Shown here in pieces: positions 1 through 58,427 of a DNA stretch of 64,000 nt. How positions within the stretch are numbered: position 1 is the stretch's first letter; each line of letters opens with the position of its first letter. This stretch comes from Buxus sempervirens (lineage: Eukaryota > Streptophyta > Magnoliopsida > Buxales > Buxaceae). The notes under the pieces were generated by a model that saw only the letters and a list, made by a program, of their open reading frames with translations, was not told the origin of the DNA and searched no databases. The translations under genes were made by a program, and so were the position numbers. The DNA lies in NCBI GenBank assembly GCA_947561395.2, contig OX387183.1, forward strand, positions 32,910,853-32,974,852, in the 5' to 3' direction.

Positions 1-1022
1 TGCGTACGTCGATCTGTGGCACATGCAGAACAAATGCGTATGGGATCACCCCTTTCGGGAGGTACCTGGCTTGTTCTCCTGCGAAAGTGTCGAAGGATCA
101 ATACACTTTCGGGATCAGGATATCGAAAAATGATAAAAGGGTTTGGGAGTTGCCACTGCCTGATGGGGTGCAAGTAGACACCTGGATGCCTAAAAATGCT
201 ATCTAATAGGTGATTTACACATCGAGATTTAGTTTAAGTGCTCGGTTACGATTCGTGGAAATTCATAGACACCCTGGTCTACCCCATCAAAAGATGGGTC
301 ATCCCTGGTTAAGGATATGATCAAGTCAACTCACTTATCTCACCCGTCTTAAGCCGATATGTTCACTTGATTAAGAGTCTAGGTGGGACCATTTTTTATG
401 GTGTAAGTCCCCTTTTATTTGATTTTTATCTTTCTTAACCATTTAGTGACCTCTGTTAGGTGTTTGGACCTCGTTGGAACGCCCACAAGATGCCAAGTTA
501 AACCTAAGCCCCATTTAGGGTTACTATATCAGATAGTACACCTTTTTTAGATTAAGTTAGGATGGTTTAGGTATGATTTTAGGGTCAAAACATGGCTGAG
601 AATGCAACTGTTAAACTTAGAAAAGTGTAACAAAATACTCAGAACGATAACAGCAGTAACTATAAGGTCAATGCAATTACAACAATAACTATAAAACCTA
701 TACAGTGACTCACAGTTGCAACCCCTTTCCTGTTTCATTGTTTTTTATTGGTTCCTTTGGATTTTTAAGGATTGTGGGCTCAGGGATGGCCCACAAGGAG
801 GTCCAAAATATTCTGAATCCACTTGATAGTGGAATTTAGGTGTGTAAAAGGAAGTGAGCCCCATTACAAAGCCCACACGAATCCATTTTTAGGCCTAGAG
901 GCAAGCCCACTTCCGAAGGTAGTCTTTGGACCTTCTGGCTTATTGGAATTTAAATACCATGGGTTTTAATCTGGAATTAGCAAGAAAATTCAAATTTGCA
1001 GGTTTTCTGGATGTCTACATCA

Positions 1023-1043
1023 TACGGTTATGCAGTAACCGTA
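1023..1043. repeat. LTR A second word palindrome
   Basis: Arms TACGGTTA and TAACCGTA around TGCAG repeat the same word seen beside the TATA box 1.2 kb away. It falls downstream of the predicted splice donor, in R/U5. Confidence 0.6.
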
Positions 1044-1909
1044 GATGTTACATGGTGATGGCTGCATCGGTTTGAGATTATGGTGCAGCCCAGAAACCTC
1101 ATAGAACTGTATTTACTAGGGATTTTTGGGATCCCCTTTCCCATGTGAGTCTGGTGTCAGTTGTGGATCCATTGGTTGACCCACAGTGGATTCCAAAATT
1201 GATTTTAGGCTTTAAGCCTATTCTCTATGTGACTTGAGTCCAAAAGAGAAGGGAAGAAGCTTGGGGATTTCTCTTCTTCCTACTTGAGTGTAAAGGGATA
1301 ATCTCTTATAGAAAGAGACTAAACCATATACCCGAAAGGTCTTGCTTGGGGTTTAACGATCAAACCACACATGAAAGCACCCAAAAACAATGAATAAAAG
1401 ACATGATGAAGCATCATGGGACTCTAACACACTACTGTGATTGGAGTGTGCCCATGGACATGGAAGGTGTTCCTACATAATATCATGCTTCTAGTAATTC
1501 TATAAAGACATGCTTTCAGTGTGGGTGTGTATTTATGCAAAGTGTACGTATGCAAGACCATTCAACTCAACTTAGAAGCATATTAACCAATCAAAACAAA
1601 TAAAACTATTGAAAGGATGACTGGAGTTAAGGGGTACATTAGATCCAAATAGGGAATTAAGGAAGAAATAAAATTACGCTTTGACTAAATGGTCTAAAGA
1701 GACTTTAAGGGACCTCATGAATCTCTCATTCTCCCACATGACCACCTTAGGCTTACCTTTCCTCATGAGGATCTCCCTTAAAGGAGATGAATAATCACAA
1801 AAGAAGAGAATGAAGAGGGGGAGAAGAACCCCAAGAATAAAATAAACTAAAACATGCATTCTTATTTCTCTAAATCAAGCATATTACATTAAAATAAGGA
1901 AAGAAACAT

Positions 1910-2245
1910 ACCTTGAAGAGAGAAAGAGGACTTTAATGGAGTTTTGAGTTCCCTTGAGGTGTTCTTGCAACAATGAGAGCCCACCTTTCTTTCTTGTGGA
2001 GGAATGTTGTTTTTCAATGGTGTAGGAATCACCAAGATCAAAGTTAAAAAGCTTTTCTTGGAAGAAGAATGGATTTAGATGGGTTAGGGAGACTTAGTAG
2101 GAGCTTTCAGAGGTTCTCAGGGTGTAAGAAAGGTGTAGAGAGCTAAAAACATCAACAACCTTTTGCACAAGGGGTGCACAAGCCTATTTATAGATAAATT
2201 TTGTAACCATATACTCAGTACGGTTACAGTGTAACCGTATAGTAT
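1910..2245 (-). promoter_or_regulatory. LTR A promoter, word palindrome and splice donor
   Basis: On the minus strand TATAAATAGG lies at 2192-2183. About 27 bp upstream is a perfect inverted repeat with arms TACGGTTAC and GTAACCGTA around AGT (2219-2239); looser relatives flank it. Downstream, after a purine-rich leader, AAG|GTATGT gives a strong splice donor with GT at 1911-1910. Start site and splicing are inferred. Confidence 0.6.
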
Positions 2246-2504
2246 GCAGTTATAGCCTGTTACTTCTCAATGATCAGATTTCTCCACTTTTCAAATTCAC
2301 GCAAATGATAAGATTTCAATCAAATCACTTATAATCTTATGCACAATATAGTTATTCACATTTTTGTGTATTTTTAATGTAAACGTATTGCCAATACAGT
2401 TAAAGCTTGACCAGAAAGTCAACTTCTGCTCCTCAAGGTTTGGTGTGTCTTTTAGGGTTTTCATTTCTAGCTTTTAGAGGGGTGCAAAAATGAGGTGCTT
2501 ATAA

Positions 2505-3790
2505 AGGTTTTACCTTCCATTTAGAACCACTAAAAATATTCCAAGACCTAATTCCTTACCAACAAAAAGTCAACTTTTTAATTTATGCCTAAAATTCCAG
2601 TTTTGCCCAATTTTGAGGAAAACCCACTTGTTGGATTTGATGCCCAAATGGATGATTTGGAAGCCTATAAAATTATAGAAAATTTGTTAACCCTTCATTA
2701 GACTATGATAAAAATTTTGAGCTCGAAAATCCTTGTGGATTTGGCTAGAAAATCATATACTAAAAAAGTTAATATTTTAACGATACTTAAAATATTTTAC
2801 AGGGTGAAAAACATTTTGTCTTGAAAGCCATTGATTTTTGGTATGGTGACTTTATTTTGAATCCTAGGACTATCCCACTCATTAAATCTATATTTTGTGG
2901 ATTTTATGGCATTTGTTTTGCTTTGATTTGGAATTGTGAAAGTGAGATTGAAAATTCTTATGCAATTTGCAAGGTTCTTGGTCTATGGTTTGTATGGCTG
3001 TGGATGAGGAATTCCACTTGGCCTTGGTTGATTTGATAGTGGATGGGGAATTCCACTTGTCATATTGTATGGTTTGGCAATGGATGGGGAATTCCACTTT
3101 GCCCTAGTTTGTGCACTGAAGCACTAGTTTTACTCATTGATTTGAGTTGTGAGTCGTCTAATTGGGCATTATACTTAGTGTGAATCCATAGTGAGTCTAG
3201 TCAGTGTGTTAGTGTTGGATTGTTAGTTTTAATGATCTTCTCCATTCTATTGCTTTTCGCTATGGGGTATCAATGAGGCCCTCTTGGGGCATAGAGAAGC
3301 TGCGACAACCCTCTTGTCGTGGGGCATCGACGGGATGTTCTTGCGATATTGTATTATGATTTGAGGCTAGGATGAGGCCATTGGTTGGGTTGTCACTTTC
3401 CAGCCATATGTGCGTGCTCTGCTTGCTAAGTTGTCCCTAGTTAGGCTTCTCTCTGTAAGTTGTGTAGGTAGCAAATGAACAGTGGTCATTAATCTAATTT
3501 AAAGACACGCTAATCCACGAGTGCTACCAAGACATGCTTGCAGTATATGATTAGGTTTATTGAACTGATTTTATGTGTTATTCGATTGAGATGCTTTGAC
3601 TCAAATTTGGTACTTTATATCTAAGCATGATGTTGTAAAATTGCATAAATTGCTTCTATTCATGCATGTTTGCTGCTTACTGGAACTTTAGTCTCACACA
3701 TGTTTTGTAGTACCAGTTTTGTTTTCAAATCCTCCTGGTGAGCTACGAAGTGGGATAGAGTTTGAGGGAAAGCCCAAATATAGAACCGAT
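2505..3790 (+). mobile_element. LTR K left part, Tekay-like
   Basis: AT-rich non-coding sequence between LTR A and LTR B that resumes at 14540. I read both pieces as one plus-oriented chromovirus-type LTR whose start lies beyond the window. No ORF here has protein-like content. The assignment rests on composition, the internal tandem hairpin repeat at 3000-3097, and the ending TTCTACA at 15193 followed by integrase codons. Confidence 0.4.
3000..3097. repeat. LTR K tandem hairpin repeat
   Basis: Three tandem copies, about 40 bp apart, of a short inverted repeat with arms GTGGA and TCCAC (3000-3017, 3039-3056, 3080-3097; the last has lost the first base). This is a word cluster of its own kind. 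Confidence 0.6.
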
Positions 3791-6631: not shown

Positions 6632-6703
6632 AGGTGACCGTGCAGGTTACCTCCCCCCTTTTCTTGTCGGTTCTCTCTGAGGACCTGATGGGGGTAGGTG
6701 ACC
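6632..6703. promoter_or_regulatory. LTR B word palindromes beside TATA-like box
   Basis: AGGTGACC - GTGCA - GGTTACCT at 6632-6652 and a second copy whose left arm AGGTGACC is at 6696-6703; its right arm GGTCACCT is at 13927-13934 because LTR I sits in the 5-nt spacer. On the minus strand a weak TATA-like ATTAAAAGG (about 6618-6610) lies just downstream of the first copy. Confidence 0.55.
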
Positions 6704-8000
6704 GTGCATGTAACAACCCAGAACCAAGTCTGCCCATCCAAGGCACTAACCTGTCCCTGGTCCTTACATGCGTGCCTTGTGGACCTAATAAAACACGGGT
6801 AATTTAGAAACTTTTCTGTAGTAGTGGTGGTGGAACAATTAATACATGTGCATTTTAAGAATGTCTATAAAGGTAACAAAAGTCCAATGGTGGACAAAAA
6901 GTTTATGTAGAAGTACTACATGGCTAATACAAAATGGGCATCTAACCACACATCTCAGTTACAAGATTCCTCAAGTCCAAAAAAAGAAACTAAACCATAC
7001 ATAGCAATGAAATACCCTAGGTGGGACGATAGTAGTCCTCCTCTCTATACCCAAGCACCTTCTCTTTTCCTTTTTTCCCCACTCCGGTCCTTCACACCAA
7101 AAGTCGACGGTTCTAAAAACAAAACCGATAAAACAACTTATGAGATAAAAGTCCCAGTAAGAAACACATGCATTCTCCTGAAAACACAGTATGCGCACAT
7201 CGGGATCGACGGCGCACCGGGGCCCATGGCAGTTGCGTGCCTCCTAAAGGGCAAAACGGGAAATTTGGAGTCGCTACTACCTGATGGGGTGCAGGTAGGC
7301 ACCATGGTACCTATACGGGTCTATTTTGAGTTGGTTTGTGGCTTTTTAGAGATTTCAGCTAAGTCCTCAGTTACGATCCGAGGAAGTCTGAAGACACCCC
7401 CAATCCACCCTACCGGTTCAACAGATCCCTTAGGTCTCCCTGGTTTGAGTCAACTTAAACTCACCCTATTCCTATTTCCTAAGCCAATCATGCATTCTTA
7501 TTAAGTCTGAGTGGACCTTCAAAGGTGTGGGTCCCCTTTATTTGAATTGATTTTATCTTTTTAGCCTTTGATGAAGTGGGTCAAAAATGGGCCCCGTTGG
7601 AAGGCCCATTGGATGCCTTATTGGGCCTGGGTTATACCCAATTCCCATGTAGGGTTACATTAGATAACCCTAATTATTGGTTTTGGTTGTTTGATTTAAA
7701 AGTTAATTATATTTACAAAAGTAGTGGGTTAAAATTTTTAAGGCCCAATGGGCTTGGAGGTGGCCCATGGGTCATTATCCAAATGGCTGTGGGGCCCATT
7801 ATAAAAATGGACCCTGGTTTGGGCCGGACTGGATGTGGGCCCCAGTGGAAGGCTCACAATGTCTTATTGGGCCCATGTAGGCCTAAGTCTCAAAAATGGG
7901 CTTGGATTGACCCAAAGGCCCAAATGGTTCAAGTTGGTTAAAATAGGGTCAAACCGGTTGGAATCGGGTCCAAAAGGAACAAAATTTGAAGGCTTAACAA

Positions 8001-8092
8001 GTCTGTCCGCATACCCTATGCAGATCAGACCTATCCGCACATATAGTGCGATCGGGTCTGATCCGCACTAGGTATGCGGATCCGACCCGCAA
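8001..8092. repeat. LTR C word cluster 2
   Basis: Repeated, inverted variants of TCCGCA and TGCGGA (for example ATCCGCACTAGGTATGCGGAT near 8070) in the R/U5 part of the LTR. Confidence 0.55.
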
Positions 8093-8860
8093 ACCCAAAA
8101 TCGCCAAATCTACCTCAGGGTCGTGCTTGCCCTTATTCCAGGGGCACTCGCGACTTGCTATGGGTTTCAAAACTAACTCACAGTGGTTGGATGCCTTGCT
8201 TTTGGCTCAAATAGCTTATTTCATAGGACTTTCCAAAATGAATGGAGTTTTAGTTCTTTTGCAACCAAAAAAACCTTAAATCAGGAACCTTAGACGTCCT
8301 TGTTTGGCATCAAAACACCTATCTTTTCTCTCATGAAAGGTGGAGAAAGGAAATCCAATACGCCCAACACCTAGTTCCTATCCCATCATCCCATCATTCA
8401 TCCATCCAAACAATCCATAGAAAAATATATAGGACAGATAAATATTAGTAAACCATGCATGCAAATGGTAGCCATAAAGCCTTAAAAATCTTGTGTGTGA
8501 GATGGAAATGCTAAGTAGTATCTAACATGCTTCCAAGAGTGTGGTGTGTAAGGCTACAACGAGATTATCTTGGAAGTGAGATCATCTGTTAGTGTTCATG
8601 ATGAAAGAAAAATGACATGGATAAATCACATGCAATTCCTACTCATATCAACATGCAGATGTGCGTGTGTGGACAAGGAGTGCTTGTATGTGTACTAAAA
8701 AAAATAAATACAAAACTAACTACATGTGATGGCATGTTCCAAGAAGAATCTGAAGAACATGGAGACTATGACATGATCACACATGCTAAGTGCGGTTGCA
8801 TTTTAAACGTGCGCAATCCAAACGAAATCTGCCAGTTGGAAATTCAAATAAGGTCGGATC

Positions 8861-8903
8861 CGCATTGTATGTGCGGACACGACATGTCCGCACATACAAT
8901 GCG
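8861..8903. repeat. LTR C 19-bp perfect inverted repeat
   Basis: Arms CGCATTGTATGTGCGGACA (8861-8879) and TGTCCGCACATACAATGCG (8885-8903) match perfectly around a 5-nt spacer CGACA. It uses the same word as the cluster at 8001-8092 and sits in U3. I find no convincing TATA box beside this copy. Confidence 0.85.
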
Positions 8904-9825
8904 AACGCACACGTTTTTATTGCGCGGATTTCAAACTTTTGCCCATTTTGGCAAATTTTTGAAGATTTTATCCGATTTTCTTATTTATTTTAAATGTAAA
9001 AATCGAGATATTTTGTAAAAATGATTATTTGATTCCCGATTTTTATTTGTTTTGTCTTTTTCTGCTCCTTCGCCTCGTGGGTAGTTTTTCTGGAACTTTG
9101 ACTAGCCATAACTTTCTCATCTGATGTCTGATTTTAGCAAACTCAGTGGCATTGGAACCAAGTCGAGATTCTTTATCCACTGAGCAAAAGTTTGACAGCA
9201 AACTTAGGTTCTTAGCAGAAGTGCAAAACTGCGTCCCTGAATCCAGTTTTGCTTATATCTTCCTCTCCAGGACTTCGATTCCGGCAAACTCAATTGCCTC
9301 GGAATCGTGTCAGGATCCTCCATCTTTCGGGATTAAGGTGGGCAACTGAACTTGGTTTGAGTAGAAAAGCAATTTCTGCTCCCCTTAAGTTTGACCGGCT
9401 CATAACTTCTTCATCCGGACTCCAATTTGAGCAAACTCAGTTGCGTTCGAATCGTGTCGGAATTTCCTATTCAAAGGGAAGAAGCATGGTGGTTGATTCG
9501 CATTAGATCAAAAATTCAACTTTTGGACCCCTTAGGGTTTGACATTTCAGTTAAGATTTTTATTCCTTCATTTCTAGGGGTGCAAAAATGAGGTGCTGAT
9601 ACACAGCTCATGCTAATGTCACTTGAATAAAACCATAACATGTGGATAGTTAAAATATCAGCTAAATCATCAACAATTTAATATCAATCAAGTGATGTAA
9701 TTCCATGTTTAAAGGAAAAAGTCAAGCAGTCAACAAATAATAGTACAGCAAGTCTCATCAATTATTTATCTAGGCAGTTTAATATATAGTACTTATGACC
9801 ACATCTAACTCCACTGATTTCACGT

Positions 9826-15351: not shown

Positions 15352-15712
15352 GCAGTTGTAAGCACCACATTTTTGCACCCCTCTTAAAAGGCAGAAATAA
15401 AGAAAGACCCTAAAAGACAAGCTAAAACCCTAGGGAGCAAAAGGTGACTTTATGGCTAAGCCCAAATTGATTTCCATACCTTATCCCAATGAGTAGAGAA
15501 TCTCGATACGATTCCAACACAATTAAGTTTGCAGGAATCGGAGCCCAGATGGAAAAGATATGAGCAAAACAGTCTCAGGGGCAAATTAGTCAAAGTTTAA
15601 AACGTCTTAATTAAGTTAATCAAGATGAATAAAAAATACATAAATTGGAGAAGCTTGATTCACCCGAATGGGCAGCTGAGTCACCTCAACCAAAAAAGGG
15701 GGAGATCGCATG

Positions 15713-16200
15713 TAGAGTGCGGTCGATTTTTCGGCCACCGTTCGCGTGAACCAATCAGGGCAAGCGGTGGACGAAAAGTAACCGCACTGTAAGTGCAGTT
15801 CGCTTTTCGTCAGTCTGTGCCTGCGCCTATTTGTCCTCTAGTTAATACTGAAAAGACATGGCCGAACAGCAAATACTGTGCGGTTTCGACCAAACCGCAC
15901 TGCATGTGTGGTTTTGTCTCTGTGTTCTATAAAAGGCAAATCCGAACAGTAGATAAGGGATGACCATTTTCCACTGATCTTTCTCAATCCCCCCTACTGC
16001 TTGAACCTCCGAACTCCTTTTTCTTCCATTCTCAAGACTTTAAATCCACAAAAACTCTCCCTTACTCCATCCCTTCCTTCATCTCCACCCAAAGAAGGAA
16101 CCAAGGACTTGCTGTTGGTGTTAAGAGGAGACTCTCCAGCCACTTCCATTGCTTCAAAGAGGTTCGAATACACCTCTCCAGGGTTTGTAAACCCTAAGGT
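15713..16200 (+). promoter_or_regulatory. D 5' LTR promoter: words, TATA, leader, donor
   Basis: Word variants of GTGCGGT and ACCGCAC recur over 15713-15900. The best is a perfect inverted repeat, arms GTGCGGTT and AACCGCAC around TCGACC... at 15878-15900, 28 bp before TATAAAAGG (15928-15936). Transcription would start near 15960. AAG|GTAATG forms a splice donor with GT at 16199-16200. Confidence 0.7.
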
Positions 16201-17058
16201 AATGATCTCCATGGTGAATTGTTCAACATAAATGGGAATGAGCATCTTTTGAATATGTCATAGTGTCTTCCATCTTCAGCATGTTTTTCTCTTCCTTTCC
16301 AGCATATTAATATCTCCTTTCTTCACTTTTCTCACTCACTTTGGAATGAGGAAATCCCATGGTAAGGGGAAGCATACGAATGGCTTCAAAGGGAAGGAGA
16401 GGTCCCATCTATACATGATTTAATGGCCTTTAGTGTACTATTTTGCTAAGTGATTTGCTCTATTCAAATGGGGGAGTATGTTCCCCTTTGTTTGCTCATC
16501 CATTGTATCCCATCTTAACCCCCCTCTTTCCCTTCTCTAACTAGTCTTGTTTAGATAATCTTGTGTTTTTCTTTAGCACAAAGTCTATGATGGGGTTTGT
16601 TGTTTGTTAGGTTGATTTGCATATATGCATTAGATATGCCCTCATGCCCATCCACTTTCTCATTAGAAGCATGCTAGGTCTTCTATTGTTGGTGTCACCA
16701 ACCATCTCATTGCATAGGTGAATACACAAATAGCCTCTTGAATGCATATAGCCTGTAAGAAGGCATATATTTCCATCATGATTTAAGGTATGCAAGGTAT
16801 CCTTGATTGGTATAGTTTCATTTGTTTCATATGTTTACTGATATGTGGAGTATGAAGAACCGAAACAGGGACACCTAGGTCCCTGTCCCAAGTTGACTCT
16901 TAACCAGGAAGATCCGAAGGACCCGTCAACCGATGGGGCGGACCAAGGTGTCTTAGGACTTCTCTGGACCGTAACCGTGACCCTACTTAGAATATCAAGC
17001 CATAGACCAAATTAGACAAGCTTAAGCACCCATGTGTCTGCCTGCACCCATCAGGTGG

Positions 17059-17068
17059 TGGCGACTCC
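17059..17068 (+). other. PBS-like decamer inside U5
   Basis: TGGCGACTCC, identical to the first ten bases of the tRNA-Arg-type primer-binding consensus, lies 78 nt before the LTR end. Equivalents sit at similar distance in E, F1 and F2. Confidence 0.75.
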
Positions 17069-17149
17069 AACCTTCCCGTTTTACCCTTTTAGGAGGCACG
17101 CGTGCTCCCGCACGCCTCGGAGGTGTAGCGTTATGACATGCGCACAGCC

Positions 17150-17167
17150 TGACGACTCCACTGGGAA
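17150..17167 (+). other. Primer-binding site of element D
   Basis: TGACGACTCCACTGGGAA starts three bases after the 5' LTR. Apart from A in place of the second G it fits the complement of a plant tRNA-Arg 3' end, the primer reported for Ogre elements. That identification is from memory of the family. Confidence 0.75.
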
Positions 17168-18510: not shown

Positions 18511-18855
18511 TCGGAGATCAACTCTTCAAGTCTCCGAATCCAATCAATTAGGAAATCAACTCTTCGAGTTTCCTAAACCTAACTAGAGATCAACTCTTCA
18601 ACTCTCCGAATCCAATCAATTAGGAAATCAACTCTTCGAGTTTCCTAAACCTAATCTGGAAATCAACTCTTGTAGTTTTCAAAACAAAATCAAAAGGAAA
18701 TCAACTCTTGAAGTTTCCAAAACCAAATCAAAAGGAAATCAATTCTTGCAGTTTCTCAGAAATCAACTCCTGAAGTTTCCTAGAAATCAACTCTAGCAGT
18801 TTCTTGGAAATCAACTCTTGAAGTTTCCCAGAAATCCATTGTTGTAGTTTCCAAT
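18511..18855 (+). repeat. Hairpin array 1 in D leader
   Basis: About 11 tandem units, 25-50 bp apart, each with an inverted repeat around a conserved loop near TCAACTCTTSNAG. Stems include TCGGAGA/TCTCCGA (18511-18537), TTAGGAAA/TTTCCTAA (18548-18576 and again 18620-18648) and AGAAA/TTTCT. The stems vary in matching pairs while the loop stays similar. Confidence 0.75.
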
Positions 18856-19090: not shown

Positions 19091-19104
19091 AAATAGCAGC
19101 CCCT

Positions 19105-19505: not shown

Positions 19506-19560
19506 TTTGAAGATTGCGCCTCGTAGCCTGTACCTTTTGCGCTCCAGAAGAAGACTACAA

Positions 19561-23543: not shown

Positions 23544-23579
<36 letters not shown>

Positions 23580-26507: not shown

Positions 26508-26512
26508 GCAGT

Positions 26513-47090: not shown

Positions 47091-48435
47091 GCGACCATTC
47101 ACGCTCCGAGTTCCGACAATTGCCAATTCTCTATAACTTCAAATTCAATCTCTCTGAGCTAAAATTAAACATTCACAACACTAGAATTCCCTTCTACAAT
47201 CTTCTAAAACATGAACAAACACATTCGGATTTAAATTAAACACAATTGTTCTAGAAATCATAGAACTGCTCATATATATACATATAGTCGTTAAATTTTC
47301 TCTCCGAACAGAATATGCAGCAATCCATCCGAAATTCATTTGCAATCTCGATAAAACAAAGTTCTACTTACCTAATCGACACCAAATTTCCTCTCCTGGA
47401 TGAGATTGATCAACCGATCTGAATTTATATATGCTGATTTTCTCTTCCGTTCTGATCTGAGACATTCACAATTCTTACTCAATTTTTGGATTCAGATCAT
47501 CTATCTTTGATATATTGTTTAATTGAATTAACTAGAATCTAGATGATCTTACATACCTGATCAGATTTGATTAGAACAAAATTCTCCAATCTAGCCATGA
47601 GATCTCCGTTGTTCTCTTCCTCTCTTCCTCAATTAAGTTCGACAATCACCAACACTACTCCTCCTCAACTCCTGAGATCCTCTTCCCTTAGTGTGCGCAC
47701 CTAAAATTGGATCCTAGATCGCACACCGGGCGCACCTTTTGTGCGTGCCACAGGACTTACAGAGTCGCCACTGCCTGAGAGGTGCAGGCAGACACGGTGT
47801 TTGCCCTATCCGGGTCTAAGTCTGGTCTGCGGCTTTTCAGAATTCTAGCTAAGTCCTTGGTTACGTCCGGGGAAGCCCTAAGACACCCCGGCCCGCCCCA
47901 TCGGTTTGACGGGTCCCTCGGGTCTCCCTGGTTTTTGAGTCAAGTTCACCCTTCCTAGGCCAGCATGCTGCTTTATTTGGTCTGGTGGGACCCTCTAAAG
48001 GTATGAGTCCCTTTTATTTGGATTTTATCTTTTTTTTATTTATCTAAGTGAAATGGGTCGGACCCGGGTCCCGTTGGAAGACCCGTGGGCTGCCATGGTT
48101 GGGCCTTAGGCCCAGTAGGGTTATTGGGTAACCCTTTTTGGTTATTTAAATTTTATTTATTTACACTTTTATTTGGGCTTGATGGGCTTGGATTTGGCCC
48201 ATTAGCCAAGGGTCAAGGGGCCTGGGCCTGTTTATTGAAAACAAACCTGGTATAGGCTGGTCAAAAGTGGGCCCCTCAAATGGGCTCAAGGTGGTCTTGG
48301 TGGGCCTGGTTGGGCCCATGGTCCATAAGGGGCTAAGAATAGCCCAATTAACTTCTTGGGTCGAGTCAAGCCGGTTTAGGTCGGAATGGATCCAACCTGA
48401 CCAGAAAAATTTGTTTTTTAAGTTATTTTAACACT

Positions 48436-48545
48436 GCCCGTATTTGCTATACGGGCTGGCCTTGCCCGTAAGGGGAATGCGGTTCAGGCTTGCCTGTATC
48501 GTAAATATGGGCACGCCCAGCCCGTACTGTAAATACGGGCATCTG
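48436..48545. repeat. LTR F1 word cluster 2
   Basis: GCCCGTAT/ATACGGGC (48436-48456), then further GCCCGTA, TGCCTGTA and TACGGGCA copies to 48543: the word seen beside the TATA box, 1 kb downstream of it. Confidence 0.75.
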
Positions 48546-49053
48546 CTCGAGTTTGCATTTTTGAGCCGATTTTGGCCAAGATCATTTCTGTGGTCTTCTT
48601 AGGGTGCTCGAACATTCTTCACTGGTTTCCAGCTTCGTCATAACAGCTCATGAGTTATGCTTCTGGCTTTAAAAGTGCCTCTTCCCTTCTTTTTAATGCA
48701 CTTCACTGGGGGGATCTCCCATGTCTCCACTACTCACTTGAGTTGGCTTTTGGCATGTATGTTAGCAAGATTTATTAAGAAGGGAAGTTGGGGGTGAGTT
48801 AAGGATACATGTAGATAACAAGGAGGATAGAACCCTTCCATAAAAGTAAAGATGTCGATCAGGAAGCTGAGATAAATTATCTTAACAGCGTAGAATTCCT
48901 CTCATGCTTCGAATGGGGTCTTCCCCTCATGATGGGGAGCCCAAGGTCATATATAACAAGAACAAACGGTGAGAAACAAATAGCAGGAATGGAAGAAATT
49001 CAATAAAATATTTGAATTCAAAGTATGTTGAATACAACTTTACCAGGAGCATT

Positions 49054-49640
49054 ACCTTGCTTTTGTCTTTTGATTCTGACGGGTTCTCTGAGAAATTTGG
49101 GCAGCGCTTCCGCACCTCCTTTGATTTCCTGAATTGGGTTTGAAAAGGGGTTCTCCTATTCTTAGGTTTGAATAGGTGAAAGGTGGAGATAGTGGGTAGA
49201 TTTTAACAGCGCTTCCGCGCTCCTGATGATTTCCCGAAATGGGTTTGAAAAGGGTTCACTAGCTTTTGGTTAGGCAGGGTGATAAAAGGAAAGGATTAAA
49301 TAGGGTCTAGGGGTAAAATAGGAATAAAATGGGGTTTGAAAATGACAGGGGGTTTTGGGCAGAGCTTGGACGTGGCAAAGCTCAAGGAAGGAGAGGAGGA
49401 GAGCCTAGGGGTTAGCTCCTTCAAATGAGGGGGGTGGCCTCTCTATTTATAGGCAAAATTTTCGTGCCCGTACTTGAACTACGGGCATGCCTTGCTCGTA
49501 ATTCAAATACGGGCGAAAAACGCACATTTCCAAATCTCGCAAAATCGGCCGTACGGGACGAGTGTCCCGCCGTACAGCGACACGCGTCCCCTTCTAGAAG
49601 CTCGCCCGTATTTGAAATACGGGCATGCCTCGCCCGTACT
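49054..49640 (-). promoter_or_regulatory. LTR F1 promoter: words, TATA, donor
   Basis: Arms TGCCCGTA and TACGGGCA (49465-49487) and further copies to 49640 (TGCTCGTA...TACGGGC, GCCCGTATTTGAAATACGGG). Minus CTATAAATAG lies at 49452-49443. A leader of about 360 nt ends CAAG|GTAATG with GT at 49055-49054. Confidence 0.7.
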
Positions 49641-51379
49641 TCAAATACGGGTCAGCACGTTTTTTAAATGCTGGATTTGAAACACTTTATTAAATTTGAT
49701 TTTTAAACGGATTTTATTCGATTTTAATGATTATTATATTAAAATATCTTCAGATATTTATTAAAATATTATTAAACAATTATTTTATTTATTTTATTCA
49801 TTTATTCTGCCTTTTTGCTGCTGTTTTGCCACATGGGCAGTTTTCTTGAAACTTCAACTGCCCATAACTTCTTCATTCGGTGTCCAATTTTAGCAAACTT
49901 AGTGTCGTTGGAACCGGCTCGGAATCACCTATCCACTGGGATCAAGTTGGGCAGCTGAATTGGGATTGAGCAAAAAGTCAACTTTTCGCTCCCCAAAAGT
50001 TTGACCAACTCATAACTTTCTCATCCGGACTCTGATTCCAGCAAACTTAGTTGCGTTGGAACCGTGTCAAAATGCTCTTTTTTGATGAGATGAAGTTTGA
50101 TGGTCAAATTCACTTGAATCAAAAGTCAATTTTTTGGCCCCCTCAGGGTTTGACTTTTTAATTGAAATTTTCATTTTCTTCATTTTTTGGGGTGCAAAAA
50201 TCATGTGCTAACACTTAGTGCAGATCCAAACGCTAGCTTCTTCCTCTTGCTTCTCTGAACTCCAGATCGCCTGAATACCAACTAACCAAACCGTCGAACG
50301 AAAACAACCCTCCTTATATAGTTGCCGCCAGTTACATGTTTAAAGTCTGATTGGGTACTTGCCACTCCAGCATATTTCCTGCATAAGCACTATTAAATAC
50401 AACTTTATTCCATGCTCACCATTCTATTGTACCACCAAAAATCTAGCCAATGAAATATTAACAATATCTCTTACCTTAATTAATACAATTCCCTGTCCGG
50501 TTCACCCGAAATTTCTAATTCGAACCCCTTATTCTCCTTTTCCTGCAATGTTATATCATTAAAATAATTTTAATTACTAAAACCAGAATTTTAATTCTAT
50601 TAAAATTCAGAGTTTTACAGTGCTGGCCCACTAGCGGGCGGGTGTGCGCACCTAAAAACTAGATCGCACATGGGGCGCACGTGGGGGTTCGTGTGTGCTT
50701 CGGGACTTTCGGAGTCACCACTGCCTGAGAGGTGCAGGCAAACACGGGAATTGCCTATCTGGGTCTAAGGCTGGTCTGCGGCTTATTAGAGATCTAGCTA
50801 AGTCATCGGTTACGTCCGGGGAAGTCCGAAGACACCCCGGCCCGCCCTGTAGGTCTGACGGGTCTCTCGGGTCTCCCTGGTTTTGAGTCAATTCCACCCT
50901 TCCTAAACCAGCATGCCGCTTTTTGGTCTAGTAGGGGCCCTCTGGAGGTATGGGCCTCCTTTCATTTTATTTTTATCTTTTTATTTATGTTAGGTGGGTC
51001 AGATACGGGCCCCATTGGAAGGCCCGTGGGTTACCAAGGTTGGGCTTGAGCCCAGCAGGGTTATTGAGTAACCCTTTTTGGTTTATTTTGGGTTATTTAA
51101 GCAATTAATATTATTAAAGCCTTCTGGGCTTGGATTTGGCCCAATAGCATTTAAACAAGTGGCATTGGGCCCGTTTGTTGAAAACGGGCCTGGTTTGGGT
51201 TGGTCAAAGGTGGGCCACATAGGTGGGCCCAGGAGGTTTTGGTGAGCCCATTTAGGCCCACAGTCTGCCAATGGGCTAAGAATAGCCCAAACAACTTATT
51301 GGATTGGGTCGAGTCAGTTCGGCTCGAATCCGGGTCCAACCGGGCCGGAAAAATTGATTTTTTAAGTTATTATACAACT

Positions 51380-51480
51380 GCCCGTATTTGCTATACGAGC
51401 TGGCCTTGCCCGTAAATAGAATACGGTTCAGTCTTGCCCATATAGCAAATACAGGCATGCCCACACTGTATGTTAAATAC
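51380..51480. repeat. LTR F2 word cluster 2
   Basis: GCCCGTAT...ATACGAGC and further GCCCGTA/TACGG copies, more decayed than in F1. Confidence 0.65.
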
Positions 51481-51986
51481 AATTTTCACCTATTTTACTG
51501 TTTTGCTCCGATTTTGGTCGAGACCATTCCGGCTACCTTCTAGGGGAGTCCGGCGACATCTGCAGAGGTTCCAGCTTCTTCACAGTAATGCCTTTTGCTC
51601 CATTTGGCTTAGAAATCCTCTTTTCTTCTCTTTTGCATTCTTTGAAGAAGCAAACCTTTCTTTTAACCATTCATTGCCATTGTCAAGAAGGGAAGAAGAG
51701 GGAGATTACAGGGGATAACAGATATTCCAATGAACCCAAAACCCTTTCAGTAATAACAGACAAAATGGGTTAATTAATTATTTGTTTAAAGTGTCCTTAG
51801 TAACCTATTGTTACTCTCCTCCCTTTAGCATGGAAATGATCACCTTGGATCAAGTTTCTCGTAACATACAACAGCCAAGAAACATGTTAGAAATGACATA
51901 TTAAGAGCAAAGTATAAAAAAACTTAAGAAGATATCAGAAGCAGCTACAATCCACCTATATTGAATATAAAACTGCAGAAATGCTT

Positions 51987-52510
51987 ACAGTATAATCACG
52001 TGCTTTCTTTGGTATGTTTGTTGTTCTTCCGAGTGAATTCGGCAACGCTTCCGCATTCCGATTGATTCTTAGAAATTGATTCAAACGGGGGTTCACTGGG
52101 TTTTTATGTTAAAAGGGTGAAAGGGAAGGGTTTAGGCAGGGTTTAGGGGCAAAACCGGCATTTGGGCGGATGCTGACAGAGGGGAGGCAGGGTTTGGACA
52201 TGGAAATAGCCAAGAGGGAGAGGGAGGACCATTAGGGGGACCAGCTTACCGAAATGGGGGGCTGGCCCTCCTATTTATAGGCAAAAAAGTCGTGCCCGTA
52301 CTTAAAGTGCGGGCATGCCTTGCCCGTATTTGAACTACGGGCACGCCTTGCCCTTATTTCAAGCACGGGCGAGCCGCCCTCATGCGCAAATCTCGAGCAA
52401 ATCGCCCGTACAGGACGCGTGTTTTGCCGTACAGCGACACGTGTCCCTTCCAGAAGGTTTGCCCGTATTTGAAGTACGAGCATGCCCTGCCCACACTTCA
52501 AATACGGGCG
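51987..52510 (-). promoter_or_regulatory. LTR F2 promoter: words, TATA, donor
   Basis: TGCCCGTA at 52293; TGCCCGTA/TACGGGCA (52321-52343); more pairs to 52510. Minus CTATAAATAG at 52280-52271. Donor CT|GTAAGC has GT at 51988-51987. Confidence 0.68.
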
Positions 52511-52892
52511 AGCACGTTTTTAAAATGTTGGATTTCAAACCCTTTACTAAATTTGATTTTTTGTAAGATTTTTATCCGATTTTCTTTGATTATTTTATTA
52601 TAAAACAAGATTTTTTAATTAAAATATTTAATATATTAAAAAAACACATTTATTTTATTTATTTTATTCTGCTTTTTGCTGCCTTTTTGCCACACGGGCA
52701 GTTTTCTTGAAACTTTGACTGCCCATAACTTCTTCATCTGGTGTCCAATTTCAGCAAACTTGGTGTAAGTACCTCATTTTTGTGCTCCTAGAAAAACAAG
52801 AAATGCAAACCCTGGACAGAAAGTCAAACCCTAAGGGGTGGAAATTTGACTTTTTGATCAAGTGAAAATTGGCCACCTCCCCCTATACCATT

Positions 52893-53400
52893 GGATAGAG
52901 AATCCCGATACGGTTCCAACGCAACTGAGTTTGAAGGAATCGGAGTCCGGATGAGGGTTCTGCGGGCGGTCAAACTTGAGGGGAGCCAAAAGTTGACTTT
53001 CTACTAAAATCCGATCCAGATGCTTACCCCTATACCATTGGATAGAGAATCCTCACACGGTTCCAACGCAACTGAGTTTGCAGGAATCAGAGTCCGGATG
53101 AGGGTTCTGCGGGCGGTCAAACTTGAGCGGAGCCAAAAGTTGACTTTCTGCTAAAATCCGATCCAGATGCTTACCCCTATATCATTGGATAGAGAATCCT
53201 GACACGGTTCCAACGCAACTGAGTTTGCAGGAATCGGAGTCCGGATGAAGGTTCTGCGGGCGGTCAAACTTGGGCGAAGCCAAAAGTTGACTTTCTAATA
53301 AAATCCGATCCAGAGGCCTACCCCTAGGTCATGGGATAGAGGGCTCCGATATAATTCTAACGCAACTGAGTTTGCCCAGATCGGAGTTCGGATGAAGAAA
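52893..53400. repeat. Conserved module, four tandem copies in LTR G
   Basis: Units of about 147 bp with GGATAGAGAATCC, GGTTCCAACGCAACTGAG, GGAATCGGAGTCCGGATGA and a GTTGACTTTC stretch. Single or double copies of the same module occur in A-F and D, often strongly conserved, so it looks like a family-wide U3 element. Confidence 0.8.
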
Positions 53401-53683
53401 ATATGAGCTGTCAAAATTTCCAAGCAGCAAAACCGACAAACTGCGCACGTGGCAAAAAGCTGCACACGTGGCGAGTTGCACAGGAAAATATCTCAGGGAT
53501 CAAATCCGTAAATATCCAAACGTACGAAATATCCCAGGGACTAAATCTGTAAAAATCCAAGAATATCGGATTAAATTAAAAATGGCTAGGGACTAAATCT
53601 GAAAAATTCAGATTTTCCGACCGACGAGCGGCCGCATTAAATTTTTTGTCATCATATTGCCGCTCGCGCGGACGTGGCAAGCA

Positions 53684-54099
53684 GGTATGCGCTCAGCTTG
53701 CGCTCAGCGCAAGCTTAGCGGATACCCCCTTTTTCCTCACCTATATAAGCCGCGCGAGGTTTCGCGCAAAGGGTTGGAAATTTTTCTTAAAAAGTTTTGG
53801 TTCGAAGATTTTTTTTGGTTGAAGGGTTTTGGTTTGAAGGTTTTTGGTTGGGAATTTTCGTTGGCTCCAGGTGCCGTGCCCAAGCTTCTTCCCCACCCGA
53901 ACCCTACTGGTCTCAGTGGCTTCGGCCTCCCCAAGCCCCCCACCTTGATCCAACACTCCCCTATTCTTGCTTCTTCTTCATCCCCACACAACCAAATTGA
54001 GGCCGATTGCCGTTGGAGGTGCAAGAAAGGAGAGCTCCAATGATCGTGCCACCTCAAGGAGAAGCCGCCGCTTTGCACAAGAACGTAGGAACCTCAGGT
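53684..54099 (+). promoter_or_regulatory. LTR G promoter: hairpin word, TATA, donor
   Basis: A 43-nt imperfect hairpin: arms GGTATGCGCTCAGCTTGCGC (53684-53703) and GCGCAAGCTTAGCGGATACC (53707-53726), 18 of 20 pairs, ending 15 bp before TATATAAG (53742). The leader ends CTCAG|GTATTG with GT at 54098-54099. Confidence 0.75.
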
Positions 54100-54772
54100 A
54101 TTGTTTCTCACTTGTTTACATACATAAAAATGGGAGTCGTAAGCATATTATCGATACTGTTCTTCTTCCTTTCCTTGTTACGCATTTTTTGTGCTCTTCC
54201 ATTTTGGGTGACATGGAGGTCTCCCAGGGTAAGGGAGGCCCCATGCACGACCCTGTTAAGAAGATGAGACTCTCATTGCTACACCCTGTGTTCATGAGGT
54301 CCCTGGGTTTCTTTCCAAGCGCTTCTACGAGGAACCGGCCCCTCATTCATCTCATCTAATGTATCCCTATAAACCCCCCTCCTCCTTCCCTTCTTCGGAT
54401 GTTAGTGTGCATACTCGGAGGTCCAGTCGTGTGGATGAAAGCGCATGTAATGTCTATATGTTGTTTTTTATTTTATGTTGCTGGACTTGCTAACATGCTC
54501 CCATACCCCCTGCCACTTGCTATATGCTCCTTGTGTCACTATAAGCATGCTCCCAGCACCCCATAACCAGATGTCTATAGCTGTCATGTTTGATAACAGT
54601 CGGGTTTGTATTTTTCGTAAAGGGATCTTGTGTACTAAAGTAGCTTAGATTAATTTTAATGCATGTTAAAGGTCTCTTGGGAGTCTGGGGAACACCTAGG
54701 AGGGGTTACAGAGCTTAAAAAAACAAGTCAAAAATGGAGTTTGAGCAAAAAACCACAAGATCGGGTTACGTA

Positions 54773-55141
54773 GGGGTATGCGCCGAGCTCGCGCTCACCT
54801 TTTTTGGGTGCGTTGATCTCGCGCCTACCTTCTTTTTGGGTGCGCTGAGCTCACGCCCACCTCGGAAGCGGATCGTTTTTTTTGCATCCACCGAGCTTTG
54901 CGCCTAGCTTGCGCTCAGCTTGTGCCTACTTGTTTTTGGGTGCGCTCAGCTCGCGCCTACTTGTTTTTGGGTGCGCTCAGCTCACGCCTACTTGTTTTTG
55001 GGTGCGCTCAGCTTGTGCCTACTTGTTTTTTGGGTACGCTCAGCTCGCGCCCACCTCGCCCACGGATGCTTTTTTCTGCTATTTTCGGTCCACCCAGCCC
55101 GCGCCGACCTCGCGATAGCGCTTGAGGTCGGCGCATACCCC
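54773..55141. repeat. LTR G word cluster 2, long hairpin
   Basis: Perfect 14-bp arms GGGGTATGCGCCGA (54773-54786) and TCGGCGCATACCCC (55128-55141) enclose a tandem array of about ten units of 30-40 bp on GGTGCGCTCAGCTCGCGCC. The 75-80 aa frames here are an effect of the repeat. Confidence 0.85.
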
Positions 55142-56664
55142 TAAAAAAGGCCGAATTGCCATATTTTTGAAAAAACCCATAAATGCCCTTTACCGTACCG
55201 CATAATGAGCCAGTCTCTCCTTAATAAGTATCAACCTTGTATATTTTTCTGTGATTATTGCTGGATGTGAGTGCCATTTCCGAACCGAACTGGAAACCCA
55301 ACATGGGACTTGGACCCCTTGTCCAACTTGATTTCCAGTGGGCCTTCCAACGGGGCCCACCCAGCCCAATAAACACAATGAAATGTATGCATGCAACTTA
55401 ATCAAGATAAGTAAAATTAACTGATTAAACCGGGCGGACCAAACCTAAGGCGGTCCACCCGAACCAGACTTGTGAAATTGATGCATGAAATGTATGGTTT
55501 GGCTGAGACCAAGGGCAAGGGCCTACCGGGTCCGCCAAAGCCCACCAACCGAACCAAGGAAGGGTGCAAACCCTAAACTCTAGTAACTTGGGCTTTCAAG
55601 CCCTAATCAGGGCCACGGGCCCCCAAGCCCAGTGCCCCACCCATTTTTGGAAACTTAAAAAGATAATACCACTAAAATTACTTGGCTACCATGTGGGCCC
55701 ACCTAAGGGGCCCACAAACCAATCCGACCCACCTTTGCATGGAAAACACTTAATCTCCAAATCTAAACCTAAAGTAAAATCAATGCACTTAACCAAAGCC
55801 CAAAGGGCCTCCTAGGATAGACCGAGGCCCACAAGGGCACACAGGCTTGACTAAGCCCACCAAGGACACCGTGGGCCTTCCAACAGGGCCCACCCAACCA
55901 GACTAAGATTACCTAATTAATCAAGATAAAAGCAATTAAAGGGACCCACACCACTCAGGTGGTCCCGCCAGACTTAACCAAATTGCATATCGGATTAGGA
56001 ATCGGGTGAGACCAAAGTAAGCTGACTCAAACCAGGATAAACCTAAGGGACCCATCACCCGACGGGGTGGACCGGGGTGTCTACAGATTTCCCCGGACCA
56101 CAACCGAGACCCTACTTAGAATCTCAAAGCCACAGACCAAAAGCCCTAATAGACAAGGTTAGGCACCCAGGTGTCCGCCTACACCCCATCAGGCGGTGGC
56201 GACTCCAAATTTCCCAGTGCCGCGTTCCCGATGCGCGCACACTTGGTGTCATTGGAATCGGCTTGGAACCCACTATCCATTTAAATCAATTTGGGCAGCT
56301 GCATTAGAGTCGTTTGACCGGCTCATAACTTTCTCATCTGGACTCCGATTCCAGCAAATTTAGTTGCGTTAGAATCGTGTCGAAATGCTCTTTTTAATGA
56401 GATGAAATTTGATGGCAAAATTCACTTGAATCAAAAAGTCAATTTTTTTCCCCCTCAGGGTTTGACTTTTAGTTTGACTTTTTCATTTTTCTTCATTTTA
56501 GGCGTGCAAAAATCAAGTGTCTACAGCGGGGTCAGGCACAGGCATGCTTTAAGCATGTTGGGGCGTGCCATGCCTATGCCGGCCTGACTCGATAAGCAAC
56601 CCTACCACACAGTGTGCCCGACATACTTGCTTCTTGGTTGAGCGTAAAATATAGTTGAGTTGAG

Positions 56665-57148
56665 AAGTTAGATGGGAAAATTATGAGAAAGGGTCACTTT
56701 TCCTCGATAATTATAAAACCAGTCCATCATAATTTGGAATTACAGAAAACGATCACTTTTTGTCGATAATTACAAAAACAGTCCATCGTAATTAAATTAC
56801 AGGATCACTTTTCAAAAATAATTAAATTTGAGGATCACTTTACTTGATACCCAAACACAATGCAATGTTGGATACGAACGCATCTTACACGAAACACAAG
56901 CACTCGCATTCTACGTGGGATACTAGCGCATCATACGTGGACGCATCTTACATGGAATACAAGCGCTCACATTCTACGTGGGATACGAGCGTATCATTTG
57001 TGGATGCAAGCGTGGTTTACCTACAATAAAATGACATTATTTTTTAGTTTTTTTTAAAAGTGACCTTTTTGTAAAATGAGATTTTTATGGACTGTTTTTA
57101 TAAATACAGGTCAAAAGTGACATTTTTCATAATTTTCCCAACTTAAAT
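56665..57148. mobile_element. MULE-like non-autonomous TIR element
   Basis: Body 56674-57139 (466 bp). Left GGGAAAATTATGAGAAAGGG; right on minus GGGAAAATTATGAAAAATGT; inverted similarity continues (GTCACTTTT ... ATTTATAAAAACAGTCCAT). Flanks AAGTTAGAT and AACTTAAAT match at seven of nine bases, fitting the 9-bp duplication of Mutator-like elements. The left TIR is itself repeated about three times inward (56690-56840). No coding. Confidence 0.7.
56878..57003. repeat. Two 63-bp tandem units inside the MULE-like element
   Basis: ACGCATCTTACACGAAACAC... (56878-56940) is repeated at 56941-57003 with about ten differences. Units contain TTCTACGTGGGATAC. Confidence 0.85.
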
Positions 57149-57294
57149 TTGCGAAAAATGGTTCTCTGACTTCTTTCCTTATTGAAGATTTTCACATGTT
57201 TTCTTCTCTTAAGAGTTCTTATCATGGTTTTTAATTGTTAATGGTTGGAAACTATATTTATGATTTTGAGATGTGTGGAGTACTAGTTATATGG
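57149..57294. other. Short AT-rich spacer
   Basis: No recognised feature between the MULE-like element and the presumed LTR start of L. Confidence 0.4.
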
Positions 57295-58427
57295 TGTTTA
57301 CACCCTCCGTAGACCGATAAATAAGAAAAGGCCACGTAGCATCCACATGGCCTTACTCAATCAGATAGGCCACGTCGGCATACACATAGGCCAGATACTC
57401 AGCCGAAGCCACATAAGCACATATGACAACCGTCCTCATATTTTCAAGGGATCACGTCACCATCAGCCGAAAGTCGACCGTTAGAAAATGGGCGACTGCA
57501 AGCAAGGAGTTAGTCGTTTATGATCGTGGCTGAGAAGTTATCTCTCGCAAATAGAAAACTGCAGATGAATAACCTCTATGAAGATCGTGCAAAATTGGTA
57601 CGTTGAGCAACCGTCAGAGAACGGCTATAAAAGGCACAAGTTCGAAGAACTTGAGGACAACCTCCATCAAAAAACCGCAACCGGTTATCATAATGCTAAT
57701 TTGATCATCCGTGATCTTTATCCTGTCTCCTACACCCCAAACTGTAGCAAGAAGGATAAATTAGGACTTCTCTCACTACTTCCAGTCGCAGTGACACTCT
57801 AGGGCCTTATTTACTCCAATTGACGTCAGAACCCTGCCACCGGCAAGTAGGTTGAGGCCGCCCCTGACTCGCGATTCTGTACTCCAATTACGGCTACAAG
57901 ATTCCGAGCAGCCAGTCCCGAGACCGACTTCGATCTAGCCAAGTGACTCACGGACTTTCGGCTAAACAGCAATCCTAAGTGAAGCCCCGAGTTTATCGTG
58001 GTTAACAACCGCCCCCTAAATCCTTCCCTTATACCCCAATCATGGCTATAAGAATAGGAAAGGCCGATCCTGTTAGTTTCGGTGACTTTCTTTTTTAATT
58101 ACTTTTGAGGATTATCTATTGTAATCTACGGTTGTGTGCCATCAGCCGATTTTATAATAAAGTGATATGCCATTGACTGCTTTGACTTTCAAACACGTAT
58201 AAGAACCCAAACGAAGACCGAACCCCTAGTCTTCATTCTATTGCCTGACCGGTTTTGTTACAATTGACTTGCAGTACGACTAAATCGACTCTGGTTTAGA
58301 TTTGGAACAAGTGCCCAAGGTCAAGATCCGACCCGAAACCTTTGCATCAATTGATACTAGCATGCCTACGCAGAGACACATGATCAAAATCACCACGTGT
58401 CCAAACAGGCCCAATTTTGGAGGAACA
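57295..58427 (+). mobile_element. Element L 5' LTR, Tat-lineage
   Basis: Presumed LTR TGTTTACACCCTCC...GGAACA, about 1.1 kb, set by the downstream PBS; the 3' LTR is off-window so both ends are approximate. TATAAAAGG lies at 57626-57634. About 270 bp upstream, AAGGCCA/TGGCCTT (57328-57354) and more GGCCACGT copies suggest a word cluster here too. Confidence 0.55.

What the first reader, a model, noticed from the sequence alone, without database searches (positions are those of the whole stretch)
1..58427. Each LTR family carries its own palindromic 'word' at the same promoter-proximal position
Seen directly: Tat-type LTRs share U3-start and U5 blocks, but just upstream of the TATA box each has a cluster of one short inverted word that differs entirely between families. 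A: TACGGTTAC/GTAACCGTA. B: AGGTGACC/GGTCACCT. C: CGCATTGTATGTGCGGAC and complement. D: GTGCGGTT/AACCGCAC. E: CCGAAATT/AATTTCGG. F1 and F2: TGCCCGTA/TACGGGCA. G: GCGCTCAGCTTGCGC and complement. In A, C, E, F1, F2 and G the same word returns about 1 kb downstream. In A, D, E, F1, F2 and G a word copy ends within about 15-45 bp of the TATA box. Conserved position with free-changing sequence looks like a family-specific address bound by a co-evolving factor. Known parallel: VANC anti-silencing proteins of VANDAL MULEs recognise family-specific short motifs. Alternatives: repressor sites or an RNA-dimerisation signal; copies upstream of TATA argue for DNA recognition. I know of no description for these elements.
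Basis: partly seen in the sequence, partly recalled or inferred. Interest (0 to 1): 0.88.

Follow-up and report, generated by a model that had tools for sequence, protein, structure and literature searches.

The report
Family-specific operator arrays in Ogre LTRs
Large plant retrotransposons in this genome carry, just in front of their promoter and often again about a kilobase later, arrays of a two-fold symmetric DNA sign whose layout is fixed but whose letters change from family to family, which looks like a family-specific docking site for a regulatory protein.

Summary
The observation largely holds, with a stronger rule behind it. The words of A, C, D, E, F1 and F2 are versions of one 21-bp dyad, NNCCGNN-N7-NNCGGNN (CCG-N11-CGG), mostly in 28- or 39-bp steps. 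In the window the last copy ends 11-13 bp before CTATA in A, D, E, F1 and F2. Letters beside CCG change. Genome-wide, CCG-N11-CGG 5-35 bp before CTATAAATA gives 3,875 matches, N10 17 and N12 12. A further family picked from that list (H, ATCCGGC) is the same LTR group, with its word again at +1.1 kb. Across seven families, promoter and downstream words match within better than between (2 of 5,040 permutations). B is not supported; G uses another arrangement. The F element is Ogre-type Ty3/gypsy and encodes a plant-mobile-domain protein before gag, with pieces in G-like and H elements. Best reading: DNA operator arrays for a dimeric factor whose specificity changes between families. Binding, and whether the factor is element-encoded, are untested. 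Closest precedents: Sirevirus repeated motifs and VANC motifs.

The parts
60..2505 (-). LTR A (solo or partial); bounds approximate
   Evidence: U3-start and U5 similarity to D and E; sequence
2205..2225 (-). A promoter unit AACCGTA-N7-TATGGTT, ends 11 bp before CTATAAATA
1023..1043 (-). A downstream copy TACGGTTACTGCATAACCGTA (CGG-N11-CCG)
7190..9604 (-). LTR C; bounds approximate; no TATA located
8858..8906 (-). C upstream units, half-site RTCCGCA
8005..8081 (-). C downstream units, half-site RTCCGCA
15357..26509 (+). Element D, LTRs 15357-17148 and 24729-26509 (94.8% identical); gag (PF03732) at 20080-21213; no other ORF of 200 aa or more inside; no PMD match by tblastn
15780..15913 (+). 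D 5' LTR promoter units AACCGCA; last ends 13 bp before CTATAAAA at 15927
25237..25285 (+). D 3' LTR promoter units; last ends 13 bp before CTATAAAA at 25299
27027..30231 (+). LTR E
27659..27860 (+). E promoter units AACCGAA-N7-TTCGGTT, last three in 39-bp steps; last ends 12 bp before CTATAAAA at 27873
29032..29130 (+). E downstream units, 39-bp steps, same word
47710..50212 (-). LTR F1
49466..49652 (-). F1 promoter units GCCCGTA-N7-TACGGGC; last ends 13 bp before CTATAAATA
48436..48540 (-). F1 downstream cluster, same word
50640..52766 (-). LTR F2, main part (remainder 56237-56519 beyond the nested G)
52294..52509 (-). F2 promoter units ending 13, 41, 69, 180 and 208 bp before CTATAAATA
51380..51428 (-). 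F2 downstream cluster
52764..56239 (+). LTR G, solo, nested in F2, flanked by CTTGG
53695..53715 (+). G promoter inverted repeat AGCTTGCGCTcAGCGCAAGCT, starting 46 bp before CTATATAAG
54779..55051 (+). G downstream tandem array of GCGCTCAGCTCGCGC-like words, 31-32 bp period
6632..6703 (.). B word: two direct copies, no TATA, no inverted cluster; not confirmed

Best explanation
These are promoter-proximal operator arrays of Ogre-type (Ty3/gypsy, Tat) retrotransposons. Each unit is a 21-bp DNA dyad, NNCCGNN-N7-NNCGGNN, bound by a dimeric protein that reads the CCG core in all families and the letters beside it in a family-specific way. Units are stacked in 28- or 39-bp steps, the last at a fixed distance from TATA, so that bound factor contacts the basal machinery or opens the LTR; a second cluster about 0.9-1.2 kb downstream mostly carries the same letters. 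When letters change, both arms and, mostly, both clusters change together, as expected if the site follows a factor whose specificity shifts. Shown: geometry, position, genome-wide abundance, arm and cluster matching. Inferred: DNA binding, dimerisation, activation or anti-silencing. The factor is most economically element-encoded, the plant mobile domain (PMD) ORF upstream of gag being the candidate (my probability about 0.3), but a host factor family is about as likely.
For: Spacing: CCG-N11-CGG upstream of CTATAAATA gives 3,875 matches genome-wide; N10 17, N12 12; backward-read controls 10, 6 and 20. In the loci held, 31 distinct CTATAAATA sites: N11 17, N17 6, N24 1, other gaps from 0 to 30 none. 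Position: the unit ends 11-13 bp before CTATA in A, D, E, F1, F2 and 11-15 bp in 20 of 25 F-like LTRs with a TATA; of the first 100 genome-wide matches listed, 99 have a CGG-to-CTATAAATA gap of 14-17 though 5-35 was allowed (counted by eye from the coordinates). Family H, picked from that list: units ending 12, 51 and 90 bp before TATA and again at +1057 to +1174, mostly ATCCGGC; its 3' 950 bp are 81% identical to G. Arm matching above all 1,000 permutations at each of four variable positions, 113 units in 32 of 38 loci. Promoter-downstream matching: 2 of 5,040 permutations over A, C, E, F1, L053, L085 and H. No wobble excess. PMD ORF open over 498 aa in F, PF10536 E 1.4e-21; pieces in two further F loci, three G-like loci and H, none in a fourth G-like locus, L105.
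Against: No binding or expression data. Relatedness inflates the arm and cluster tests; the tree gave only 2 independent pairs on starred branches. L082 and L095 have a TATA without any unit in 150 bp upstream. In some F-like LTRs the downstream letters depart from the promoter's: L059-L062 (GACCGTG/GTCCGTG against GCCCGTA), L039, L086 and L092 (RACCGTA against CCCGTA or CCCGCA); in A the unit scan misses the downstream copy, and A scores lowest. G does not fit N11. L052 and L086 are 91-98% identical over about 720 bp and then drop abruptly to 67-69%, about 130 bp before the downstream cluster, where their words differ: recombination may swap modules. The window's D lacks PMD. Sireviruses have CGG-CCG palindromes before TATA (PMC2829016) and to my recollection no PMD, which points to a host factor.
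Confidence: 0.6

Rival explanations
1. The units are binding sites for host transcription factors (a dimeric family with a CCG core; recalled candidates LBD/LOB or AP2/ERF, and SBP or MYB for single words). Families specialise on different paralogues; no element protein is involved.
For: Sirevirus LTRs, an unrelated Ty1/copia lineage, have palindromic CGG-CCG boxes just upstream of TATA (PMC2829016). The same ACCGCA word serves D-type and F-type promoters. No PMD match in D.
Against: One exact geometry kept while letters at several positions change in many copies at two clusters is more than picking up unrelated host sites would give, unless all factors are paralogues with the same dimer geometry.
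Confidence: 0.3
2. RNA stem-loops (7-bp stem, 7-nt loop) acting in dimerisation, packaging or translation of element RNA.
For: The unit could fold as a 7/7 hairpin; arms change together.
Against: No excess of G.T pairs over A.C pairs (49 against 60 in 150 distinct units); fixed distance to TATA; linkers nearly as regular as loops in the F-like sample (CGG-N11-CCG 69 against at most 20); the promoter cluster lies upstream of the TATA box.
Confidence: 0.08
3. By-product of replication: template switching creates and homogenises short palindromic arrays, and the matching of the two clusters is conversion within the LTR; CpG-rich words are only silencing targets.
For: Tandem 28/39-bp steps; mosaic pair L052/L086.
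Against: A mutational process does not explain one gap (N11) over N10 and N12 by more than 200-fold before this TATA, nor the fixed TATA distance.
Confidence: 0.07

Closest known systems
Sirevirus repeated motif (RM) boxes (Ty1/copia; PMC2829016, passages and sections 9 and 19 read)
   Same: Multi-copy palindromic boxes in the LTR just upstream of a conserved TATA; CGG-CCG core (12 of 13 listed elements) with other letters differing between elements; additional copies at a second place
   Different: Different superfamily; core spacing short (for example CGGTCTGACCG), not CCG-N11-CGG; second cluster lies before env, not in the LTR; no factor identified; no word change within a family analysed in the parts I read
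VANC targets of VANDAL MULEs (PMC5735166, PMC10398659, passages read)
   Same: Short family-specific motifs in arrays in non-coding parts, changing together within a family; element-encoded factor there
   Different: DNA transposons; motifs arrayed in one orientation, not dyads; binding shown there, not here
Ogre-type Tat retrotransposons with a plant mobile domain eORF (PMC6317226, passages read)
   Same: Additional RNase H between RT-RNaseH and integrase and a PMD ORF upstream of gag in the F element; PMD is reported in 57% of Ogre elements
   Different: No operator array described for Ogre LTRs in the listings and passages I saw
Retand TRP28 antisense ORF (PMC11963269, abstract, passages, section 11 part 1 and section 12 read)
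   Same: Tat element with an extra ORF thought to bind DNA and regulate the element
   Different: TRP28 sits antisense after pol; LTRs 315-1,194 bp; PF04195 could not be tested here because the searches did not complete
Yeast Gal4-type sites, CGG-N11-CCG (recalled)
   Same: Same 11-base gap between inverted triplets, as in the linker-centred version here
   Different: Fungal Zn2Cys6 proteins; no homology implied

Membership tests
Ogre (Ty3/gypsy, OTA/Tat) | additional RNase H between RT-RNaseH and integrase | tested here: met
   RVT_3 at residues 658-776 after RT_RNaseH in L100:1203-3875; integrase in L100:3836-4879; F element only
Ogre (Ty3/gypsy, OTA/Tat) | PMD extra ORF upstream of gag (common, not universal) | tested here: met
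   L099:1263-2756, PF10536 1.4e-21; pieces in two more F, three of four G-like and one H locus; no match in the window's D
Ogre (Ty3/gypsy, OTA/Tat) | two ORFs separated by an intron-like gap before RT | not tested
   splicing was not examined
Sirevirus RM boxes | palindrome with CGG-CCG core in multiple LTR copies upstream of TATA | tested here: met
Sirevirus RM boxes | carried by a Ty1/copia Sirevirus | tested here: not met
   F element is Ty3/gypsy by domain order
Sirevirus RM boxes | forms a CpG island | not tested
   no methylation or island analysis made
VANC target motifs | family-specific short motif in arrays | tested here: met
   but one word can occur with several flank types
VANC target motifs | same-orientation arrays in a VANDAL MULE | tested here: not met
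   dyads, in LTR retrotransposons
VANC target motifs | bound by an element-encoded protein that removes methylation | not testable with these tools
   needs binding and methylation assays

The most novel reading that the evidence does not exclude
Ogre retrotransposons run their own family-private regulatory code: the PMD protein encoded before gag is a dimeric DNA-binding protein that recognises NNCCGNN-N7-NNCGGNN operators in its own LTR and, by changing which letters it reads, lets each family switch on or protect only its own copies. This would be an LTR-retrotransposon counterpart of VANC and would give the plant mobile domain, including host MAIN/MAIL1, a molecular function.
Probability: 0.25. 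Interest if true: 0.92.

Novelty: new variant of a known kind. Interest (0 to 1): 0.76.

Why it matters
A single geometric rule with many natural letter variants, sited at a fixed distance from TATA in thousands of element copies, turns the question of how LTR families keep private regulation into a direct binding experiment. It ties a Ty3/gypsy lineage to the Sirevirus boxes, for which the 2010 paper could name no factor (PMC2829016), and offers a testable DNA target for the plant mobile domain, whose mode of action was described as largely unclear (PMC9899485, passages read).

Tried and rejected
Reading the words as unrelated hairpins: rejected, because A, C, D, E and F fall on one CCG-N11-CGG lattice. 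RNA stem reading: tested by mismatch type, no support. B as an eighth word: rejected. G on the N11 lattice: rejected; G-like promoters do carry CCGCTCA/TGAGCGG half-sites, but with other gaps; of ten G-like promoter stretches fetched, four (L020, L014, L038, L010) showed no match to my TATA patterns there, though L014 has CATATAAGG. TRP28 (PF04195) as factor: never tested, because the search machine did not answer. PMD structure: not attempted. A PMD specificity region: F against G-like or H pieces drop to 0.37-0.5 identity near residues 251-280 (H) and 348-392 (G-like); too few sequences to link to words. Tree-based independent contrasts: too few. The P value of 1.1e-14 is post hoc, because the unit was defined on the same families; I rely instead.
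Full report
What is there. The window lies in an unnamed 676.5-Mb genome, G000:C3:32910853-32974852, which I take from its elements to be a flowering plant. G is nested in F2 between CTTGG repeats. A U5 pattern drawn from these families has 3,358 matches genome-wide and none for the pattern read backwards.

Checking the words. In A, D, F1, F2 and G an inverted repeat with arms of 8 or more lies within 70 bp upstream of TATA (5 of 6; E fails this strict test); dinucleotide shuffles give P = 2.6e-9, and 20 of 399 other 70-bp windows of the same LTRs have one. An earlier 400-bp version gave between 0 and 24 of 200 shuffles reaching the observed score, F2 being weakest. B has no TATA and no inverted cluster that I could see.

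One layout under many words. The words of A, C, D, E and F are versions of NNCCGNN-N7-NNCGGNN. In six window LTRs CCG-Nk-CGG has 16 hits at k = 11 and at most 6 at any other k from 0 to 35; in promoter and downstream pieces of 38 sampled loci it has 114 against at most 14. The linker version CGG-N11-CCG has 69 against at most 20 in that sample, but only 9 against 7 in the window. In the window, 37 such units exist (one core mismatch and five of seven arm pairs allowed), 32 of them in these clusters. The last unit ends 11 (A), 13 (D), 12 (E), 13 (F1) and 13 (F2) bp before CTATA; the next ones upstream follow in 28-bp (D, F) or 39-bp (E) steps, with further units at irregular distances. Of 38 sampled loci (18 from the U5 list, 20 fetched for this), 25 show an F-like TATA; 22 of these have a unit within 120 bp, and 20 of the 22 end at 11-15 bp; the three without are L082, L095 and L040, the last with only 22 upstream letters. 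The other 13 of 38 had no such TATA with upstream letters in the stretch examined, and some of them are not F-like. 13 of 152 background windows had a unit.

Genome-wide test. CCG-N11-CGG 5-35 bp before CTATAAATA: 3,875 matches, backward control 10. With N10: 17, control 6. With N12: 12, control 20. Of the first 100 places listed for N11 (all on contig C1), 99 have a gap of 14-17 from CGG to CTATAAATA and one has 25, counted by eye from the coordinates. ACCGCA-N7-TGCGGT before CTATAAATA gives 474 matches (some sites matched twice), control 0, with at least three kinds of flank among those listed, so one word can serve several promoter types. The same test with the CTATAAAAG form of TATA did not complete.

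A further family. The N11 listing contained a new word, ATCCGGC-N7-GCCGGAT, with copies in pairs, two of them about 18 kb apart. Being picked by the pattern, its gap and its nearness to TATA are given; the rest is not. The DNA around one copy (L118) is an LTR of the same group: its 3' 950 bp are 81% identical to G and 76% to L047. Its units end 12, 51 and 90 bp before TATA and lie again at +1057, +1096, +1135 and +1174, in 39-bp steps as in E, with mostly the same letters in both clusters. Its nearest relative among the loci seen earlier, L047, has ATCCGAC in its downstream cluster, so H is not wholly independent of the loci on which the rule was framed.

Letters move together. In 113 strict units from 32 of 38 sampled loci, the two arms agree at each of the four variable positions more often than in any of 1,000 permutations (at one position by a single unit, 65 against 64). 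Between clusters: commonest half-sites are RTCCGCA/RTCCGCA (C), AACCGAA/AACCGAA (E), GCCCGTA/GCCCGTA (F1), AACCGCA/AACCGCA (L053), GACCGCA/RACCGCA (L085), ATCCGGC/ATCCGGC (H); A's single downstream copy is not caught by this unit scan, and A scores lowest. Matched pairs average 2.99 of 4 against 1.61 for unmatched; 2 of 5,040 permutations reach this (an earlier measure with F2 in place of H gave 4 of 5,040). In 24 F-like LTRs with both clusters the +1 letter correlates (rho 0.79) and the -1 letter less (0.50), without correction for kinship; only 2 independent contrasts exist on starred branches. Exceptions: L059-L062, L039, L086 and L092 have downstream letters unlike the promoter's. L052 and L086 are 91-98% identical over about 720 bp and then drop abruptly to 67-69%, before and through the downstream cluster, where their words differ: a likely recombinant.

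DNA or RNA. Among 150 distinct units, arm positions that are not Watson-Crick pairs are G.T 49, A.C 60, other 50: no sign of selection for RNA pairing. The fixed distance to TATA also fits DNA.

The element and a candidate factor. L061 and L062 are the LTRs of one F element. Its interior (L099, L100) encodes a 498-aa open frame with plant mobile domain (PF10536 E 1.4e-21, DUF7745 E 1.8e-24), then gag, a sub-threshold G-patch match, RT, RNase H, an additional RNase H and integrase: an Ogre-type element. PMD pieces are also present in two more F loci, three of four G-like loci tried (L105 gave no match) and H (79% over residues 11-342); the window's D has none. The interior of F holds only one CCCGTA/TACGGG. 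PF10536 has 8,447 first-look candidates in the genome, of which 117 were scored. PMD is reported in 57% of Ogre elements (PMC6317226, passages). In Arabidopsis, the MAIN/MAIL1/PP7L complex is modelled as perhaps reading a promoter motif directly or through another factor (PMC9899485, passages; PMC7156037, passages). This makes PMD a candidate and nothing more.

What is known. Sirevirus LTRs (Ty1/copia) carry many copies of palindromic boxes, 12 of 13 listed with a CGG-CCG core, shortly before TATA and, where env is present, again before env; no factor was identified (PMC2829016, passages and sections 9 and 19). VANC proteins of VANDAL MULEs bind short family-specific motifs that spread as tandem repeats (PMC5735166, PMC10398659, passages). 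My searches (open-licence papers only, listings and passages seen) found no description for Ogre or Tat LTRs. I therefore call this a new variant of a known kind: the same sort of box in another superfamily, with a strict new layout, family and subfamily letter changes at two sites, and an element-encoded candidate.

Weighing. That the units are DNA sites for a sequence-specific, probably dimeric factor I hold at about 0.6 in the full form given and higher for DNA recognition alone. Host and element origin of the factor are about equally likely: the Sirevirus parallel favours a host family, the changing letters and the PMD ORF favour the element.

Noticed in passing
window 52764-56239 within 50640-56519: G solo LTR is inserted into F2 solo LTR with a CTTGG target duplication; the F2 sequence resumes at about 56237.
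   Followed up: yes
window 52880-53395: G's U3-start block is itself a 147-bp tandem repeat of 3.5 copies; E has two copies of a related block.
   Followed up: no
window 35959-36660: Tandem array of a 22-bp unit, about 32 copies, with an open frame of 233 aa across it.
   Followed up: no
window 15357-26509: D is about 11.1 kb with gag and no other ORF of 200 aa or more: probably a non-autonomous partner of fuller elements.
   Followed up: partly
L083, L087, L089 downstream clusters: A TATA-like block follows the downstream cluster within a few bases in these F-like LTRs; a second promoter is possible but the block is not TATA-like in F1.
   Followed up: partly
L052 and L086: R regions 91-98% identical, then an abrupt drop to 67-69% and different downstream words: recombination can swap word modules.
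   Followed up: partly
G000 contig C1 8865073, 8926100, 8987127: Three H promoters spaced exactly 61,027 bp apart, suggesting a tandem segmental duplication or an assembly repeat.
   Followed up: no
L014, L048, L067 and L046 (G-like): G-like downstream arrays also come in a TTCGCGCGAA version (L014, L048, L067) and, in L046, a GCTCACC version that matches that element's promoter word.
   Followed up: partly
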